Assembly: GCF_021233435.1 (NCBI RefSeq)
Contig: NZ_CP089468.1
Location: 1,798,001-1,862,000 of the forward strand
Origin: Halobacterium noricense
Lineage (GTDB): Archaea > Halobacteriota > Halobacteria > Halobacteriales > Halobacteriaceae
Direction of reading: 5' to 3'
DNA length: 64,000 bases
Under the pieces are notes generated by a model, which worked only from the letters and a program-made list of their open reading frames with translations, searched no databases and had not been told where the DNA came from. The position numbers were made by a program, and so were the translations under genes. The first letter of the stretch is position 1. Each line of letters starts with the position of its first letter. This document shows, in pieces, positions 2,132-61,356 of this stretch.

Positions 2132-4524
2132 GCGTGCTCGCTCCAGAACAGGTCTAGCTGGTCGCCGAGGAACTCCGGCGTCATGCGCGTGAACTCCTCG
2201 CGCTCGCCGGGACCGAGGTACTCGAAGACGGAGTGGCGCGCGCCCTCGACGTAGCGCTGGCCGACGAACGCCCGCACACCGACTTCCTCCGGGCCACGAA
2301 TCACGCGCCCGATGGCCTGCCGCGCGCGCCGCACCGCCGGCACCGTCAGCGCGTACTCGAAGGCGTGGTCCTCGCCGAACGCGTCCGCGTACGCCCGCCG
2401 GACTGCCCGCACGCGCGGCGACCCGACGTTCACGAGCGGAACGCCCACCACGGCGCACGCCGCGAGTTTGTCGCCGTCGTAGTCGACGCCCTCCGTGAGC
2501 GTGCCGCGAGTGCTCGTCACCATGACTTTGCCGTCGCCGCGGAAGAACTGGCGCTTGAGCGCGTCCGTATCCTCGTTCGAGGAGGACTCGTCGACGAGCA
2601 CGGGCTTCTCAACGGCTCCCTCTAGGTAGTCGCCGGCCCACGCCGCCTCCCGGTAGTTCGGCATGCAGACGAGGACGTTCCCCGGCGAGCGCGCGATAGT
2701 GCGGAGGACGTAGCGGTACTGCTCGCGGGTCTGATTGGCGTTCTCGCTGGTCGGGTCGCCGCGGTTGCGTGCCGTAAACGGCGTCGCGTCCACGGTGAAG
2801 CTCGCGCGGTTCTCCTCGGGGAACCGCAGGTCGTAGCGGCGCTCCACGACCGGCCGGGCTTCCGCGTCGCCGGCACCCGCTTCCAGCCTGTCGAGACCCG
2901 TCACCTCGCGGAAGACGTCGAGCGGTTCCAGCGTCGCGCTCATCAGCACGCCGCCGCCCAGTCCCGCGAACGTTTCGCGGAGCGCGCGCGCCGGCATGCA
3001 GTTGTACGTCACGAGCGCGGGCGTGTACGTCTCCGCCCACGCCGCGCCGGCCCGCCCGGACTCTTTGGGCGCGTGCTCGAGCTCGATTTCCCGGAAGTAC
3101 GTCGCGTGGTCGCGCTCCCACCACCGCTGGAGGGTGATGCCGACTGCGCCACAGACCGCCGAGCGGTCGCCGTCGTCCTCCAGAATCGCCGCGACCGCGG
3201 TGCCGATGTCCGCCAGCGACCGCCACAGGCCGCCCGTGTATCCCTCCTGTTCGGCCCAGCGCGTGAGGTCGTCGGGCTCGTCGGTCTCGGGGTCACGGAG
3301 CGGAATCTCGTGGTCGTGCTCCGGGAGGTCGCGGGGCCGGTTCGGGTCGTGGCCCTCCTCGGCGAGGTACTCGGCGACGCGGTCGTCGAGCCACTCCGAG
3401 ACGTCGCCGAGGAACTCCACGGCCTCCTCGATGGCGTCGAGGGTGACCTCGTAGCTCTGCAGTTCGTCCCGGACCTGTTGGCGGTTCGACTCGCTCTGCT
3501 TGGCCGTCGTGAGCAACTGCCGGAGGTCGTTTCGTGCGCGAGCGAGCGTGTGTCGGCCTACGCGGTCCGAGAGGAGGTCGCGCACGCGCTCCTCCAGGCG
3601 GTGGGCTTCGTCCACCACGACGAACGTCTGCTCGTCGAGCAGGTGTTCGGTGAGCCCGCGCGTCTGCGGGTCGAAGAGGTGGTTGTAGTTCCCGATGACG
3701 ACGTCCGCGTGGTCGAGCATGACCTGCTGGACGCGGTGCGGGCAGGTGCCGTACTCGACGGCGGCGGGGAGGAAGTCCTCGCTCGTGACGACGTTGTAGT
3801 CGCCGACGTCGAAACCGACGGGCGAGCCCTTGTTCCGTCCGTACCAGTCGGCCTCGAACGGGCAGAACAGCGGCGGGTCGCCGTCGGCGAACTCCTCGGG
3901 TGCGCTCGGCTGCACGGGCACGTACGGCGAGTCCGCGCCGTCAGTTCTGAGGGGGTTCTCCGAGAGATTGTGGTTGGCGTCCGCGCGCGCCGACCGTGCG
4001 AGGTCGCGGGCTTTCGCGGGGTCCCACCACGGGTCGTCGAGCGCGTCCGCGGCACGCAAGTCCACGAGTTCGCCCGCGTCCTGTCCGTCGAAGCTGCCGC
4101 CCTCGCCGTCGGCCTCCACGAGGCCCGCGGTTGACTCGCGGAGGTCCTCGCAGCGGTCGTGGACGCTGGCGTCCCGCGGGAACACGTCCTCGCGGCCGTA
4201 CGGACAGAGGTCGCGCTTCCCGACGAGCGCGACGCCGTTCAGCGGCTCGTCCAGCCCGGCGTTCATCTGCCGGAGGTCCGCGACGAACTGCTGGAGCTGC
4301 TGTTTCACGGGGGTGACGACGAACACGCGCTCGTAGTCGTCGGTGCGGCGCACGAGCTGGGCGGCCGCCGTCAGCGCCGCCATCGTCTTCCCGGTGCCGC
4401 AGGGCCCCTCCATCGCGAGGTAGCCGCCGCGCTCGCCGGCGTCGATGGCCGCGCCGATGGCGTCGGCCTGCTGGTCGTAGGGCTCGTCGAACCCGAAGAA
4501 GTCGCGCCAGTCGTCGTCGCCCAT
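2128..4524 (-). CDS. XPD/DinG-family iron-sulfur ATP-dependent DNA helicase
   Basis: A 798-residue superfamily 2 helicase. Walker A GPCGTGKT is at residues 40-47 and the DEAH box at 305-308 (VVVDEAH). A motif SATLEPL follows, and motif VI QAIGRVIRG lies near the C terminus. Four cysteines at about 107, 125, 221 and 261 lie between motifs I and II, as in the 4Fe-4S domain of XPD, Rad3 and DinG. The spacer between the second and third cysteine is long and acidic. The protein should unwind DNA 5' to 3' in repair. The ATG at 4524 starts just ahead of the Q-like DEPYDQQADA motif. It is divergent from the PAS kinase gene with 94 bases between the starts. Confidence 0.92.
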   Translation of the reverse strand: MGDDDWRDFFGFDEPYDQQADAIGAAIDAGERGGYLAMEGPCGTGKTMAALTAAAQLVRRTDDYERVFVVTPVKQQLQQFVADLRQMNAGLDEPLNGVALVGKRDLCPYGREDVFPRDASVHDRCEDLRESTAGLVEADGEGGSFDGQDAGELVDLRAADALDDPWWDPAKARDLARSARADANHNLSENPLRTDGADSPYVPVQPSAPEEFADGDPPLFCPFEADWYGRNKGSPVGFDVGDYNVVTSEDFLPAAVEYGTCPHRVQQVMLDHADVVIGNYNHLFDPQTRGLTEHLLDEQTFVVVDEAHRLEERVRDLLSDRVGRHTLARARNDLRQLLTTAKQSESNRQQVRDELQSYEVTLDAIEEAVEFLGDVSEWLDDRVAEYLAEEGHDPNRPRDLPEHDHEIPLRDPETDEPDDLTRWAEQEGYTGGLWRSLADIGTAVAAILEDDGDRSAVCGAVGITLQRWWERDHATYFREIELEHAPKESGRAGAAWAETYTPALVTYNCMPARALRETFAGLGGGVLMSATLEPLDVFREVTGLDRLEAGAGDAEARPVVERRYDLRFPEENRASFTVDATPFTARNRGDPTSENANQTREQYRYVLRTIARSPGNVLVCMPNYREAAWAGDYLEGAVEKPVLVDESSSNEDTDALKRQFFRGDGKVMVTSTRGTLTEGVDYDGDKLAACAVVGVPLVNVGSPRVRAVRRAYADAFGEDHAFEYALTVPAVRRARQAIGRVIRGPEEVGVRAFVGQRYVEGARHSVFEYLGPGEREEFTRMTPEFLGDQLDLFWSEHA

Positions 4525-22911: not shown

Positions 22912-23459
22912 GCGTACGGCGACGGCGGGCCCCGGTATCAGGGTTCCGGCGACGGCGACTATGCATGTCAGTGGACGCTTCCCACGATACCAACTCGACT
23001 TCCTGAAAGCCCTCGCCGGTCTCGACCGTCGGGCGACTCGCAGCGCTCGTCTCCCGCGGTCTCGTTCGCTGCACTCACGACACTCCCGCGGCTCGCTGCG
23101 CTCCTCGCTCCGCTGCGGTGCTTACGTCGTCCTCAGAACGCTGCGCGTTCTGATGGGTGGTTCGAGAGGACGAAGTCCTCTCGTCATCCCGAGAGACGCG
23201 ACGCGTCTCTCGGTCGACTGCGGAGGACGCGATGCGTCTTCCGAACGCCGGGGTTCGTCGAGTGGGCGGTTGGCTTCGCCGACCGCCGCAAAACGTGGCG
23301 GCTTCGCCGCCACGCGCGTCTCGCCCTTTCAATCCGCCAGGACACAGAGTGAACCGTGGGGAGAGACCACAGTTTGTCGAGTTCGAATACCTCGTCGCTT
23401 CCCCGACCTGAACAGCCGGAGACGGTAGGATTTTGCAGCGGCCGCGACGAGTCGCGTGC
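22912..23459. other. 548-base intergenic stretch holding a hairpin array
   Basis: The stretch separates aroA from the divergently read peptidase gene. Bases 23030-23125 repeat short TCGCTGCGCTC-like motifs. Bases 23126-23314 are a row of near-perfect hairpins. Bases 23320-23440 show no hairpins and no convincing gene. The many short open frames across it show no protein-like signal. Confidence 0.7.
23126..23314. repeat. array of six hairpins including a paired-hairpin element (copy E1)
   Basis: Perfect or near-perfect inverted repeats lie at 23133-23153 (8 bp, TCAGAACG), 23163-23183 (9 bp, CGAGAGGAC, loop GAA), 23189-23213 (12 bp, CCGAGAGACGCG), 23221-23243 (10 bp, one G-T), 23265-23287 (10 bp, one G-T, loop TTC) and 23294-23314 (9 bp, CGTGGCGGC, loop TTC). 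Read on the minus strand, 23183-23126 is a 58-base unit: 21-base hairpin, spacer with CCCAT, 19-base hairpin, tail AGGACGAC. Its layout matches the insert in tnpB, and parts of it match the insert in the thioredoxin reductase gene. Confidence 0.85.
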
Positions 23460-44716: not shown

Positions 44717-46029
44717 ATGGAGGTTCGGCGTACCGCGCCGGTCAAACTCGTCGCTCCCGACGAGCGACGCAACGACCTCCACGAATCCGCTCGGCAGTTC
44801 CTTCACTGCGCTAACCGTGCCGCCGAGTTCTGTTGGTCCAACACCTCCTACACCGAGTGCATCACGGCCAATACCACCGCGCGGGACGCGCTCTACGACG
44901 ACCTCCGCGACGAAACCGACCTCACCGCGAACCTCGTTCAAGAAGCCATCCGACGCGCCGTCCAAGCCGTCAAAGGATGCGTCGAACGGTGGAAACAGGG
45001 CAAGCGAGTGAGTCAACCGGAGTTCACGTCTTGGAGTATGCTTTACGACAAGCGGAGCGCCACGTTCTACCGAAACAAAGTCTCGCTCTCGACCGTTAAC
45101 GGTCGCGTCGAGTGTGACTTTGAACTTCCCTCGGACAGCCCCACACCGTACGAACGGTACGTCCTCTCCGAAGAGTTTGAGTTCCGTGCGAGCACGCTCC
45201 AGTACGACGCAGTGGACGACGAGTTCTACTTCCACATCACCACGCGAAAGTACGACCCCGAAGGAGACGGTGATGACGCAGAGGTTTCGGAAGATACCGG
45301 GCACCAAACAGTCCTCGGTATCGACCTCGGCGTTCGCAAGAGCGAAGCTCTTGCGCAGCCCATCAGAAATCTTTGATTTCTGAGGACGTCAACAGTCTTG
45401 CCGCCTCTTCAACTGGCAGATTCTGGCAAGGAGACGACTACGACCACTGGTGTCGTGAGTTCGAGAAGCGACGTGGTGAAATGCAACAGCGCGGCACGCA
45501 AGCCGCGCACAACGCTCTGCTTCGACTCGGGAAACGCGAACAAGCGTGGCGCAAACAGTACAGCCACACCGTCGCTAACGAAGTCGTCACGGAGGCCCTC
45601 TCTTACGACTGCGACGTCATCGTGTTCGAGGACTTGACCGATATTCGAGAACGACTTCCCCACGCAAAGTGGCACCACGTGTGGGCGTTCCGACGCCTGT
45701 TCGAGTACGTTGAGTACAAGGCCCCCGAACAGGGGGTCTCCGTGGAACAAGTCGAGCCGAACCACACGTCCCAACGCTGTTCGCGGACGGACTGTGGGTT
45801 CACTCACGAGGAAAACCGCCACGGAGAACACTTTGAGTGCCAGAAGTGCGGCTACGAAGTGAACGCGGACTACAACAGCGCGAAGAACGTCGGTATGCGG
45901 TACGTTCGGAAACAGGGACACAAACTCCGTTCCTCGCCCACGTCGGGGAGCGGAGACGCAGAAGTAGACCTGTGTATAAATGGTGGGATGTTGAACGGCG
46001 ACGGGTACCAGCGTATTGCTGGTGCGTGA
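44717..46029 (+). pseudogene. tnpB: tnpB, interrupted by a 56-base hairpin insertion
   Basis: The protein begins MEVRRTAPVKLVAPDERRND. It reads through to TVLGIDLGV, the RuvC I motif with catalytic Asp, at 45334. A 56-base insertion shifts the frame, and the normal sequence resumes with NSLAASSTGRFWQGDDYDHW at 45391. Later motifs are intact: Glu in IVFEDLTDIRERLPHAKWHH, zinc pairs CSRTDC and CQKCG, Asp in NADYNSAKNVG. The insertion puts a TGA at 45374-45376 that overlaps a TTG at 45373-45375 in the second frame. Reinitiation could give two halves, but loss of function is likelier. Confidence 0.88.
45335..45390 (+). repeat. 56-base paired-hairpin insertion (copy E3) in tnpB
   Basis: A perfect 9-bp hairpin CGCAAGAGC/GCTCTTGCG (loop GAA) is followed by the spacer CAGCCCAT, a perfect 8-bp hairpin CAGAAATC/GATTTCTG (loop TTT) and the tail AGGACGTC. 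The spacer-stem edge CCCATCAGAA and the end TTCTGAGGACG are identical to the minus strand of the intergenic array at 23.1 kb, while the stem cores differ. Confidence 0.9.
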
Positions 46030-54505: not shown

Positions 54506-55357
54506 TCAGACGTCGCGATAGCGACCGAGCCGCGTCCCGTCCAGCAAGTAGAGTTGGGCGTCCGGGCACGCCTCGGGGAGGAACGGCGCGAGGAATTCCT
54601 GGCCCTCGACGTTCACCCACGTCCCGCCGGAGAGGTCGTTGAATGCCGGGACCACCGCGAGGTCGCCGTGCACGTCGATGGTCTCGCCGTGGTACTCCTC
54701 GAACGGCGCGGCGTCGAGCGGGCCGCGCAGCCACGCGCGCTCGACGCGCGTCCCGCCGACCTCGTCCTCCAGCCGGACTGTCGGATGCTCGTGGCCGACG
54801 CAGACCGTCTCCGCCTCCAGCACTTCGGGCGCGGGCCACGTGTGGCCGTGCGCGAATCCGACGTCACCGAAGCGCGCGCCCTCCGGGGGTGTCGCGTCGA
54901 GGTCGAACTCGTCGGCGAGCCCGCCGTCGTGGTTCCCCACGACGAGCGTCACGGGGACGTCGAGCGCGTCGAACAGCGCGTCGAGTTCGTCGTGTTCAGC
55001 GCCCTCGGGCGTGCCGATGGCGTGCCCGAGGTCGCCGAGGAAAATAATGCGATCCGGCTGCGTCTCGCTGACGAGGTCGAGCACGCGCTCGCGGCGGTGC
55101 TCGGCGCGACTCTGGACTTCCAGCCCCTCGCGGCGCAGCGAGCGCTCGATACCCGCGTGGTAGTCAGCGACGACAAGCGCCTGCTCGCGGGTCGCGGCTT
55201 CGCCGCTCCCTCGTTCCGAGGTCTCCGTACCTTCGACTTCGCTGGTCGCGCTGCTCCCCGCTCGTCCGTCCGCGGCCTCCACGCTGTCGGCCGCGCGCTC
55301 TCCTTCGAGGTCGGCGACCGCGGCGGGTTCGCCGAGAATCGGCTCCACCAGCGCCAT
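54506..55357 (-). CDS. rpe: calcineurin-like metallophosphoesterase of the RPA operon
   Basis: A 283-residue phosphoesterase. Metal motifs are ALVVADYHAGIE, IIFLGDLGHAIG, LVVGNHDGG, FAHGHTWP and VCVGHEHPT. A segment of about 38 residues (AADSVEAADGRAG and on) at residues 20-57 breaks the usual LxGERALVVADYHAG beginning. Its DNA holds two short hairpins with TTC loops (55194-55206 and 55209-55221). The gene starts right at the stop of the RPA-associated gene, third in the rpa1-rpap1-rpe operon. It may act on DNA or nucleotides; the substrate is unproven. Confidence 0.88.
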   Translation of the reverse strand: MALVEPILGEPAAVADLEGERAADSVEAADGRAGSSATSEVEGTETSERGSGEAATREQALVVADYHAGIERSLRREGLEVQSRAEHRRERVLDLVSETQPDRIIFLGDLGHAIGTPEGAEHDELDALFDALDVPVTLVVGNHDGGLADEFDLDATPPEGARFGDVGFAHGHTWPAPEVLEAETVCVGHEHPTVRLEDEVGGTRVERAWLRGPLDAAPFEEYHGETIDVHGDLAVVPAFNDLSGGTWVNVEGQEFLAPFLPEACPDAQLYLLDGTRLGRYRDV

Positions 55358-59868: not shown

Positions 59869-61356
59869 TCAGTCGTCCGCGGGCGCGGCCTCGCTGCCTT
59901 CGGCGGCCGTCGCGCTCCCTTCGCTTTCGAGGTACTCGTCGGCGTCCAGCGCGGCCTTGCTGCCCATGCCGGCCGCGGTGACCGCCTGCTGGTAGTGGTA
60001 GTCGACGACGTCGCCAGCGCCGAAGATGCCCTCGACGTCGGTGCGCGTCTGGCCGCCGCCCTTGCCGCCGCGGGTGACGATGTAACCCTCGTCGTCGAGT
60101 TCGACGTCCGTGTCTTCGAGGTAGTCCGTGTTCGGCGTGTGGCCGATGGCGACGAAGAACGCGCCAACCGACAGCGAGAATTGCTCGGTCTCCTCGTCGT
60201 CGAGCTTCGCCGACGGGTGGCCCTCGGGATGGCGCACGAGCGTCACGTCCTCGACGCCGGCCTCGGGGGTGCCGTTGACCTCGACGGCTTCCGTGTCCCA
60301 GAGGACTTCCATGTCGCCGTCGTCGACGTGCTCCTGGATGCGTTCCTGCCAGTAGTCCTCCGCGCGGAGTTCCTCGCGTCGGTGGACCAGGTAGACGGTG
60401 TCCGCGAACTTCGTGAGGAAGCTCGCCTCCTCGGCGGCCGCGTCGCCGCCGCCGACGACGACCATGTCCTCGCCCTTGAAGAACGCGCCGTCGCAGGTCG
60501 CACACGTCGAGACGCCGTACCCCATGAGCTCGTCCTCGCCGGGGATGCCGAGCGTCCGCGCGCTCGCACCGGACGCCGCGATGACCGCGTCGGCGGTGTA
60601 GACGTCGCCGTTCGTGAGCTCCACGCGGAACGGCCGCTGGGCGTCGTCGACGTTTTCGACGACGCCGTGTTCGAGCTCCGAGCCGAAGCGCTCGGCCTGC
60701 TCTTTCATGTTGTTGATGAGGTCCGGCCCCGAGATGCCCTCCGGGAAGCCCGGGTAGTTCTCGACCTCAGTCGTGAGCGTGAGCTGGCCGCCGGGCTCGT
60801 CGCCCTCGAACAGCAGCGGATCGTTGTTCGAGCGCGCCGCGTAGATTGCCGCCGTCAGCGCCGCGATGCCCGTCCCGGTGATGATGAGCTTGCGGTGCTC
60901 GACGACGTCGTCAGCGGTTTCACCGCTTCCGTTTCGAGACCCCGCCGGGGTCTCGCTATCGCTGCCGTCGGCGATGCCGAGCTTCTCGTCGAGTTCGCCG
61001 GTCTGGTCGAGTTCGTGGGTGTCGTCCCAGCCGCCGATGAGCTCGTCGTCGATGAACACCTCGGGGGCGGTCTCGCGGCCGTTCGCGCGCTCTTTCATCT
61101 CCGCGAACAACTCCTCGTCGCCCTCTTCTCGCGGGCTCTGCCCGCTCGAATGGTTCGGGGAATGGTTCGAAAATTCCCGCTGGGAATTTTCGTCATCACG
61201 AGAGACGGCGTCGCCGTCTCTCGGATGACTTCGTTCCCCGGTAGTAACGTTGTACGTCACGTAGTCGACGCCCTTCGCGTCGAAGAGGTCCTTGGCCTTC
61301 TCGCAGTACGAGCAGTCTGTCTTCGTGTAGATTTCCACTCGGGGCTCGTCGGTCAT
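59869..61356 (-). CDS. trxB: glutaredoxin-thioredoxin reductase fusion with hairpin-derived insertions
   Basis: A 495-residue protein. Residues 1-128 are a glutaredoxin (EIYTKTDCSYCEKAKDLF, Cys15/Cys18; TAPEVFIDDELIGGW). Residues 155-480 are a thioredoxin reductase: FAD site LIITGTGIAALTAAIYAARS, redox CATC at 285-288, NADPH site VVVGGGDAAAEEASFL and a late GIFGAGDVVD. The glutaredoxin is split at residue 39 by 40 extra residues, and the linker (129-152) contains another hairpin-coded stretch; both are in frame. It probably passes NADPH electrons through the fused glutaredoxin to protein disulfides. The ATG at 61356 precedes TDEPRVEIYTK. Confidence 0.9.
   Translation of the reverse strand: MTDEPRVEIYTKTDCSYCEKAKDLFDAKGVDYVTYNVTTGERSHPRDGDAVSRDDENSQREFSNHSPNHSSGQSPREEGDEELFAEMKERANGRETAPEVFIDDELIGGWDDTHELDQTGELDEKLGIADGSDSETPAGSRNGSGETADDVVEHRKLIITGTGIAALTAAIYAARSNNDPLLFEGDEPGGQLTLTTEVENYPGFPEGISGPDLINNMKEQAERFGSELEHGVVENVDDAQRPFRVELTNGDVYTADAVIAASGASARTLGIPGEDELMGYGVSTCATCDGAFFKGEDMVVVGGGDAAAEEASFLTKFADTVYLVHRREELRAEDYWQERIQEHVDDGDMEVLWDTEAVEVNGTPEAGVEDVTLVRHPEGHPSAKLDDEETEQFSLSVGAFFVAIGHTPNTDYLEDTDVELDDEGYIVTRGGKGGGQTRTDVEGIFGAGDVVDYHYQQAVTAAGMGSKAALDADEYLESEGSATAAEGSEAAPADD
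60904..60955 (-). repeat. paired-hairpin element (copy E4) in the glutaredoxin-reductase linker
   Basis: On the minus strand a perfect 9-bp hairpin CGAGACCCC/GGGGTCTCG (60935-60955, loop GGC) is followed by AAACGGA, a perfect 6-bp hairpin AGCGGT/ACCGCT (60913-60927, loop GAA) and the tail GACGACGTC. It encodes part of the linker peptide around ETPAGSRNGSGETADD. Confidence 0.78.
61123..61242 (-). repeat. 120-base palindromic insertion (copy E5) inside the glutaredoxin domain
   Basis: Three perfect hairpins lie at 61131-61145 (6 bp), 61168-61192 (11 bp, CGAAAATTCCC, loop GCT) and 61199-61223 (11 bp, CGAGAGACGGC, loop GTC). The insert encodes 40 residues between NVT and GDEELFAEM and keeps the reading frame. 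The joints TCGTCATC and CGAGAGACG...CGTCTCTCGG are shared with the 23.1 kb array. AACCA after the central hairpin is shared as well. Confidence 0.85.

What the first reader, a model, noticed from the sequence alone, without database searches (positions are those of the whole stretch)
61123..61242. 40-residue in-frame hairpin insertion splits the glutaredoxin domain of trxB
Seen: glutaredoxin sequence runs to YNVT, then 120 bases holding three perfect hairpins encode 40 polar residues (RSHPRDGDAVSRDDENSQRE and more), then the domain resumes GDEELFAEM. The insert carries the same joints as the 23.1 kb array. Knowledge: glutaredoxins have the third strand and second helix contiguous here. Inference: the element adds a surface loop to a working protein, so a palindromic element has been domesticated into coding sequence.
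Basis: partly seen in the sequence, partly recalled or inferred. Interest (0 to 1): 0.85.

Follow-up and report, generated by a model that had tools for sequence, protein, structure and literature searches.

The report
Nested hairpin DNA inside haloarchaeal trxB
A short hairpin-forming DNA element, with a second one nested in its loop, has inserted in frame into a redox gene of a Halobacterium species; it belongs to a family, apparently undescribed, of such elements that sit in frame inside many unrelated genes across salt-loving archaea.

Summary
The glutaredoxin-thioredoxin reductase gene (59872-61356, minus) carries exactly 120 extra bases, absent from every relative aligned; relatives read YNVT|GDEELF without a gap. 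Two hairpins are perfect. The third has two internal mismatches that are a conserved tandem G.A motif.

The insert is composite. A 54-nt 'A' element (hairpin, joint, G.A hairpin) is split in its first loop by a 66-nt 'B' element of the kind in the 23.1 kb array. Among all single deletions, removing exactly 66 nt best restores the A consensus.

A elements recur in frame in unrelated Halobacterium genes (repair glycosylase, helicases, MoeA and others). All nine sites tested have clean empty sites in congeners; nearly all copies use one frame, the only one free of stops and bulky hydrophobics. The core hairpin occurs across the class (47 of 116 genomes; control 0).

'Domesticated' is not supported: at seven orthologous sites inserts show pN/pS 0.79 against 0.21 in flanks, with reduced silent divergence. 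They look like tolerated mobile DNA, comparable to Rickettsia palindromic elements. How they move is unknown.

The parts
59872..61356 (-). trxB: glutaredoxin-thioredoxin reductase fusion, 495 aa, the host gene
   Evidence: Pfam Glutaredoxin matched only to residue 39 and Pyr_redox_2; orthologues mostly 437-445 aa
61123..61242 (-). 120-nt in-frame insertion (codons 39-78, TGERSHPRDGDAVSRDDENSQREFSNHSPNHSSGQSPREE)
   Evidence: exact empty site in all relatives
61127..61149 (-). A-element hairpin 3: TCGAGCGGGC-AGA-GCCCGCGAGA, with conserved tandem G.A mismatch
   Evidence: 13 copies in own genome, reversed-pattern control 0 there; class-wide
61149..61155 (-). A-element joint AACCATT between hairpins 2 and 3
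   Evidence: conserved in alignment A1
61156..61162 (-). 3' arm of A-element hairpin 2 (TTCCCCG), pairs with 61234-61240
   Evidence: DNA fold; deletion scan
61163..61228 (-). nested 66-nt B element (TCATC-hairpin-TGATGA-hairpin-AACCA), sitting in the loop of A hairpin 2
   Evidence: alignment A3; best of all single deletions is 66 nt; 13 exact-joint matches in own genome
61168..61192 (-). B hairpin, 11 bp perfect, 3-nt loop
61199..61223 (-). B hairpin, 12 bp perfect, 1-nt loop; extended by GTCATC/GATGAC
61234..61240 (-). 5' arm of A-element hairpin 2 (CGGGGAA)
60911..60966 (-). second palindromic insertion of this gene (45 nt within this stretch, linker SDSETPAGSRNGSGETAD), A-like: hairpin, joint, G.A hairpin
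   Evidence: absent from KA-4 and CBA1126; same fold, z -4.2
23133..23213 (+). array with a B element (on the minus strand), same joints, different stems

Best explanation
The insert is two short, non-autonomous, hairpin-forming mobile DNA elements, one inside the other. Step 1: a 54-nt A element (hairpin 2 - AACCATT - hairpin 3 with tandem G.A) entered trxB between codons 38 and 39. Step 2: a 66-nt B element, the kind found in the 23.1 kb array, entered the loop of A hairpin 2. Both lengths are multiples of three and the frame has no stop, so the glutaredoxin loop grew by 40 mostly polar residues while translation continued. Shown: the empty sites, the composite anatomy, membership of two repeat families, recurrence in unrelated genes, the nearly single frame, and relaxed protein-level constraint. 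Inferred: the order of events, mobility as DNA, and that purifying selection removed insertions in other frames or places. Least certain (about 0.3): that a single-strand (HUH/Y1-like) transposase acting on the hairpins moves them, suggested only by the two-hairpin ends and the lack of target duplications.
For: Exact empty sites for trxB and for 9 of 9 further A sites tested, inserts of 51-114 nt. A family: 13 core copies in own genome, control 0; 46 covariance-model matches in own genome. Covariation of stems: 46 double-change cells vs 13.5 shuffled, 0/500, and slid controls fail. B family: 25 of 26 family genomes, exact joints, control 0, stems variable but complementary. Nesting: among all single deletions, 66 nt gives the best A consensus, 63.1 vs 19.2 undeleted, and restores an 8-bp stem with a GAA loop. 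Frame: 31 of 33 assignable A copies in one phase (26 by codon composition; 5 more by orthologue comparison); that phase alone has no stop and 0/21 bulky hydrophobic residues. Neutral-like peptide. Only the trxB B copy is coding; 34 other loci tested are not.
Against: No transposition has been observed. No A element lies near the four full Y1 transposase genes, or a fifth partial match, examined in this genome. No target duplication and no common target word was seen. No genome with A but not B in trxB was found, so the two-step order is inferred from anatomy. The orthologue set for pN/pS is small (7 sites, 36 changes).
Confidence: 0.85

Rival explanations
1. The loop is a domesticated, functional part of the enzyme kept by selection on the peptide.
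For: The gene stays open and under purifying selection (pN/pS 0.116 against KA-4); several inserts are retained between species.
Against: Inserts at seven orthologous sites show pN/pS 0.79 vs 0.21 in flanks; the trxB insert is found only in this genome; the same peptide occurs in unrelated proteins, as expected of a DNA element.
Confidence: 0.07
2. The insert arose in place by replication slippage or template switching that makes local hairpins, not by a dispersed element.
For: Stems are near perfect and differ between copies, as template-switch correction of arms would produce.
Against: The joints between stems are the same at dozens of unrelated sites and across genera, with zero or near-zero hits for the reversed control, which local events would not give.
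Confidence: 0.04
3. The palindromes act as RNA or DNA sites (mRNA stability, transcription, protein binding) and are kept for that role.
For: Silent-site divergence is three times lower in inserts than in flanks and stems covary.
Against: A copies lie in unrelated genes and are absent from most orthologues; the limited frame suggests survival rather than a site function. Not tested directly.
Confidence: 0.15
4. The gene is broken or the insert is an assembly artefact.
For: None found.
Against: Frame open over 495 codons; catalytic CxxC retained; low pN/pS; the same insert type occurs in many other assemblies.
Confidence: 0.03

Closest known systems
Rickettsia palindromic elements (RPE; Ogata et al. 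2000, described in PMC2229807 and PMC10969869)
   Same: Short palindromic repeats inserted in frame in many unrelated genes, tolerated in the protein, also present between genes
   Different: Different domain of life; here 51-54, 105-114 or 120 nt built of separate tri-loop hairpins with fixed joints and variable stems, not one long stem-loop; one element nested in another
Coding palindromic repeats of Methanocaldococcus jannaschii (Suyama et al. 2005, cited in PMC2229807 and PMC2996958)
   Same: Archaeal palindromic repeats fused into protein genes
   Different: Paper not held here, sequences not compared; host is a methanogen, not a haloarchaeon
GTAG/CGTC-tagged REP elements and RAYT transposases (PMC3733652)
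   Same: Small hairpins, singles and groups, sometimes inside genes including DNA-repair genes and helicases
   Different: Tag GTAG precedes hairpin 2 in only 13 of 35 copies; no transposase link found; most REPs lie between genes whereas most A copies examined lie inside them

Membership tests
Protein-coding palindromic elements (RPE-like kind) | Dispersed repeat with self-complementary stems | tested here: met
Protein-coding palindromic elements (RPE-like kind) | In-frame insertion in unrelated genes, absent from orthologues | tested here: met
   9/9 A sites plus trxB have empty sites
Protein-coding palindromic elements (RPE-like kind) | Insert expressed as part of the protein | not testable with these tools
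   needs proteomics
Rickettsia RPE families (homology) | Sequence homology to a described RPE family | not tested
   RPE sequences were not fetched; Rfam gave no match in the window beyond a tRNA
GTAG/CGTC REP | GTAG or CGTC tag at the hairpin foot | tested here: inconclusive
   GTAG before hairpin 2 in 13 of 35 A copies, CTAC in trxB; CGTC follows one B stem read from the other strand
GTAG/CGTC REP | Association with a RAYT/Y1 transposase gene | tested here: not met
   no A element in 24.5 kb around five of the six Y1 matches of this genome
MITE | Target-site duplication | tested here: not met
   no duplication evident at the aligned sites

The most novel reading that the evidence does not exclude
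Probability: 0.5. Interest if true: 0.78.

Novelty: new variant of a known kind. Interest (0 to 1): 0.64.

Why it matters
In-frame palindromic 'selfish' DNA was reported mainly from Rickettsia and Wolbachia, with one methanogen. A family that has left private insertions in a free-living, genetically tractable group of archaea makes two old questions testable: how such elements move, and whether inserted peptides are neutral or useful. It also explains odd polar loops (SSGQSPRED-like) in haloarchaeal enzymes that annotators and structure predictors will meet.

Tried and rejected
Rfam search of the window: only a tRNA. AlphaFold2 on 20 haloarchaeal sequences gave a poor model (mean pLDDT 50, pTM 0.38): it puts residues 37-76 mostly in coil between strand 32-36 and helix 77-90, but is too weak to lean on and was not used for fold searches. 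Y1 transposase neighbourhoods: a B hairpin lies about 1 kb from a partial Y1 match (L145), judged coincidence because no A element was found near the Y1 loci examined. Codon composition alone put five A copies on the other strand (L110, L122, L123, L100, L114): L110, L122, L123 and L100 were overruled by alignment with orthologues, and L114, not in that alignment, by its protein matching theirs. Flank pN/pS included misaligned pairs and was replaced by the codon-aligned version. Eight paper searches found no description of coding palindromes in haloarchaea; the library lacks most subscription journals, so priority is not proven.

Full report
What is there. The minus-strand gene 59872-61356 encodes a glutaredoxin fused to a thioredoxin reductase. 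Its glutaredoxin domain is interrupted after YNVT by 120 nt (40 codons). Across the 26 genomes searched in its family, those with the glutaredoxin part match residues 1-38 and 79-495 back to back, and 39 aligned sequences reaching to Natrialba and Natrinema (a few of them the same genome twice) show no insert. The host is in the genus Halobacterium, judged by its named relatives; the nearest is Halobacterium sp. KA-4. The gene is alive: against KA-4 there are 49 silent and 19 replacement changes, pN/pS 0.116.

Anatomy. Folded as DNA, the insert forms a 7-bp stem (61156-61162 with 61234-61240) that encloses two perfect hairpins (61168-61192, 61199-61223), followed by a joint and a third hairpin (61127-61149); -41.7 kcal/mol, z -7.9. 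The third hairpin is not perfect: it carries a 2x2 mismatch, 5'-CGAG/5'-CGAG, which from general knowledge is the tandem sheared G.A motif. That mismatch is conserved in the family.

Two repeat families. The third hairpin is the core of a repeat that I call A: TCGAGCGGGC-nnn-GCCCGCGAGA. It has 13 copies in this genome at up to two mismatches and occurs in 16 of 26 family genomes, against almost none for the reversed pattern. It occurs in 47 of 116 genomes of the class at up to one mismatch, reversed control zero in all. Aligned copies show hairpin 2, joint GACCATT, hairpin 3; the stems covary (46 cells with both sides changed, 13.5 expected by shuffling, 0 of 500; sliding the partner destroys it). 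A covariance model finds 46 matches in this genome, 32 and 22 in two congeners and 0-15 in the other family genomes. The two perfect hairpins belong to a second repeat, B: TCRTY-hairpin-KGATGA-hairpin-AACCA. The half-element pattern GATGACGA...TCGAACCA occurs 13 times in this genome, including the 23.1 kb array, and in 25 of 26 family genomes with no hit for the control. Joints are exact by construction of the search, while stems vary and stay complementary, 43 of 62 distinct ones perfect.

Nesting. Testing every single deletion, the one that best turns the trxB insert into an A element removes exactly 66 nt, the B element (score 63.1, 19.2 without deletion; other A copies 31-94), and restores hairpin 2 as CGGGGAAC-GAA-GTTCCCCG in perfect register. 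So the 120 nt is 54 (A) plus 66 (B), both multiples of three. Thirty-four other loci with the B pattern (35 entries, one site twice) are outside coding sequence by codon composition; only trxB's is inside.

A elements in other genes. Translation of the A loci gives the same peptide...ASSEGRSPSDRSSGRSPREDG... or SEARSASEQSSGQRPRD, in a HhH-GPD repair glycosylase, a TRM5/TYW2 methyltransferase, two Helicase_C_2 helicases, an Lhr-type helicase, MoeA, a GNAT, a hydrolase and others. For nine of these the orthologues in other Halobacterium lack the insert cleanly; the insert is 51-54 nt (hairpins 2 and 3) or about 105-114 nt (longer, more hairpins). No target duplication or shared target word was seen. 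Outside the family, 12 of 20 sampled loci are called coding in the same phase by composition alone, four are called on the other strand and four are undecided; in most of these eight the same-phase peptide still runs into what looks like an ordinary protein, which is my reading and not a database match.

Frame. Of 33 Halobacteriaceae copies whose frame could be assigned, 31 use one phase of one strand and 2, orthologues of each other, use the next phase. Twenty-six of the 31 rest on codon composition; of five that composition put on the other strand, four were reassigned by aligned orthologues and L114 by its protein sequence matching theirs. Thirteen copies stayed undecided, and copies at orthologous sites are not independent. 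The preferred phase is the only one of six with neither a stop nor any bulky hydrophobic residue in 21. I read this as survival: insertions that add a polar loop are kept, others are lost.

Is the loop domesticated? At seven orthologous sites shared by two genomes, the inserts have pN 0.073 and pS 0.091 (ratio 0.79) and their flanks pN 0.058 and pS 0.279 (ratio 0.21); Fisher p 6e-4 for the ratio of change types and 2e-6 for the lower silent rate in inserts. The peptide is thus nearly unconstrained relative to the DNA, as expected of an element kept or homogenised as nucleic acid. The numbers are small, and none of these seven sites is trxB itself.

A second insertion. The linker between the two domains of the same gene holds a further 15 residues that KA-4 and CBA1126 lack; its DNA folds as hairpin, joint and G.A hairpin, the A plan with different stems.

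Known relatives. Reviews describe in-frame palindromic elements in Rickettsia and, from citations, Wolbachia and M. jannaschii (PMC2229807, PMC10969869, PMC2996958), and REPs inside repair and helicase genes (PMC3733652). The haloarchaeal family fits that kind; I found no description of it in the open library, which does not prove there is none. Mechanism of movement remains open: six Y1 transposase matches exist, and no A element was found around the five examined.

Noticed in passing
window 55183-55251 (open frame 54509-55357, minus): Another A-like match (E 0.001) in frame, encoding SEVEGTETSERGSGEAATRE in what looks like a coding frame.
   Followed up: partly
window 45335-45383: Two perfect hairpins CGCAAGAGCgaaGCTCTTGCG and TCAGAAATCtttGATTTCTGA; the joint CCCATCAG also occurs (reverse strand) in the 23.1 kb array.
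   Followed up: no
L159 (own genome C1:926368) and L227/L228 (other families): In-frame A-type insertions at what looks like the same position of the same protein (NYVC.FEG|...TVVD): old shared insertion or a repeated target.
   Followed up: no
own genome C1:884412, 1377318, 1582018, 1607836, 1821158, 2370081: Six copies of the B half with identical stem GAGAGGACTTCGTCCTCTC, suggesting recent spread of one variant.
   Followed up: no
L156 (own genome C1:2129491 and 2131117): Two in-frame A-like insertions in one 1434-codon open frame.
   Followed up: no
L145 around 3087-3140 and 4126-4378: A B-type hairpin pair about 1 kb from a partial Y1 transposase match; probably chance but the only such neighbour seen.
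   Followed up: partly
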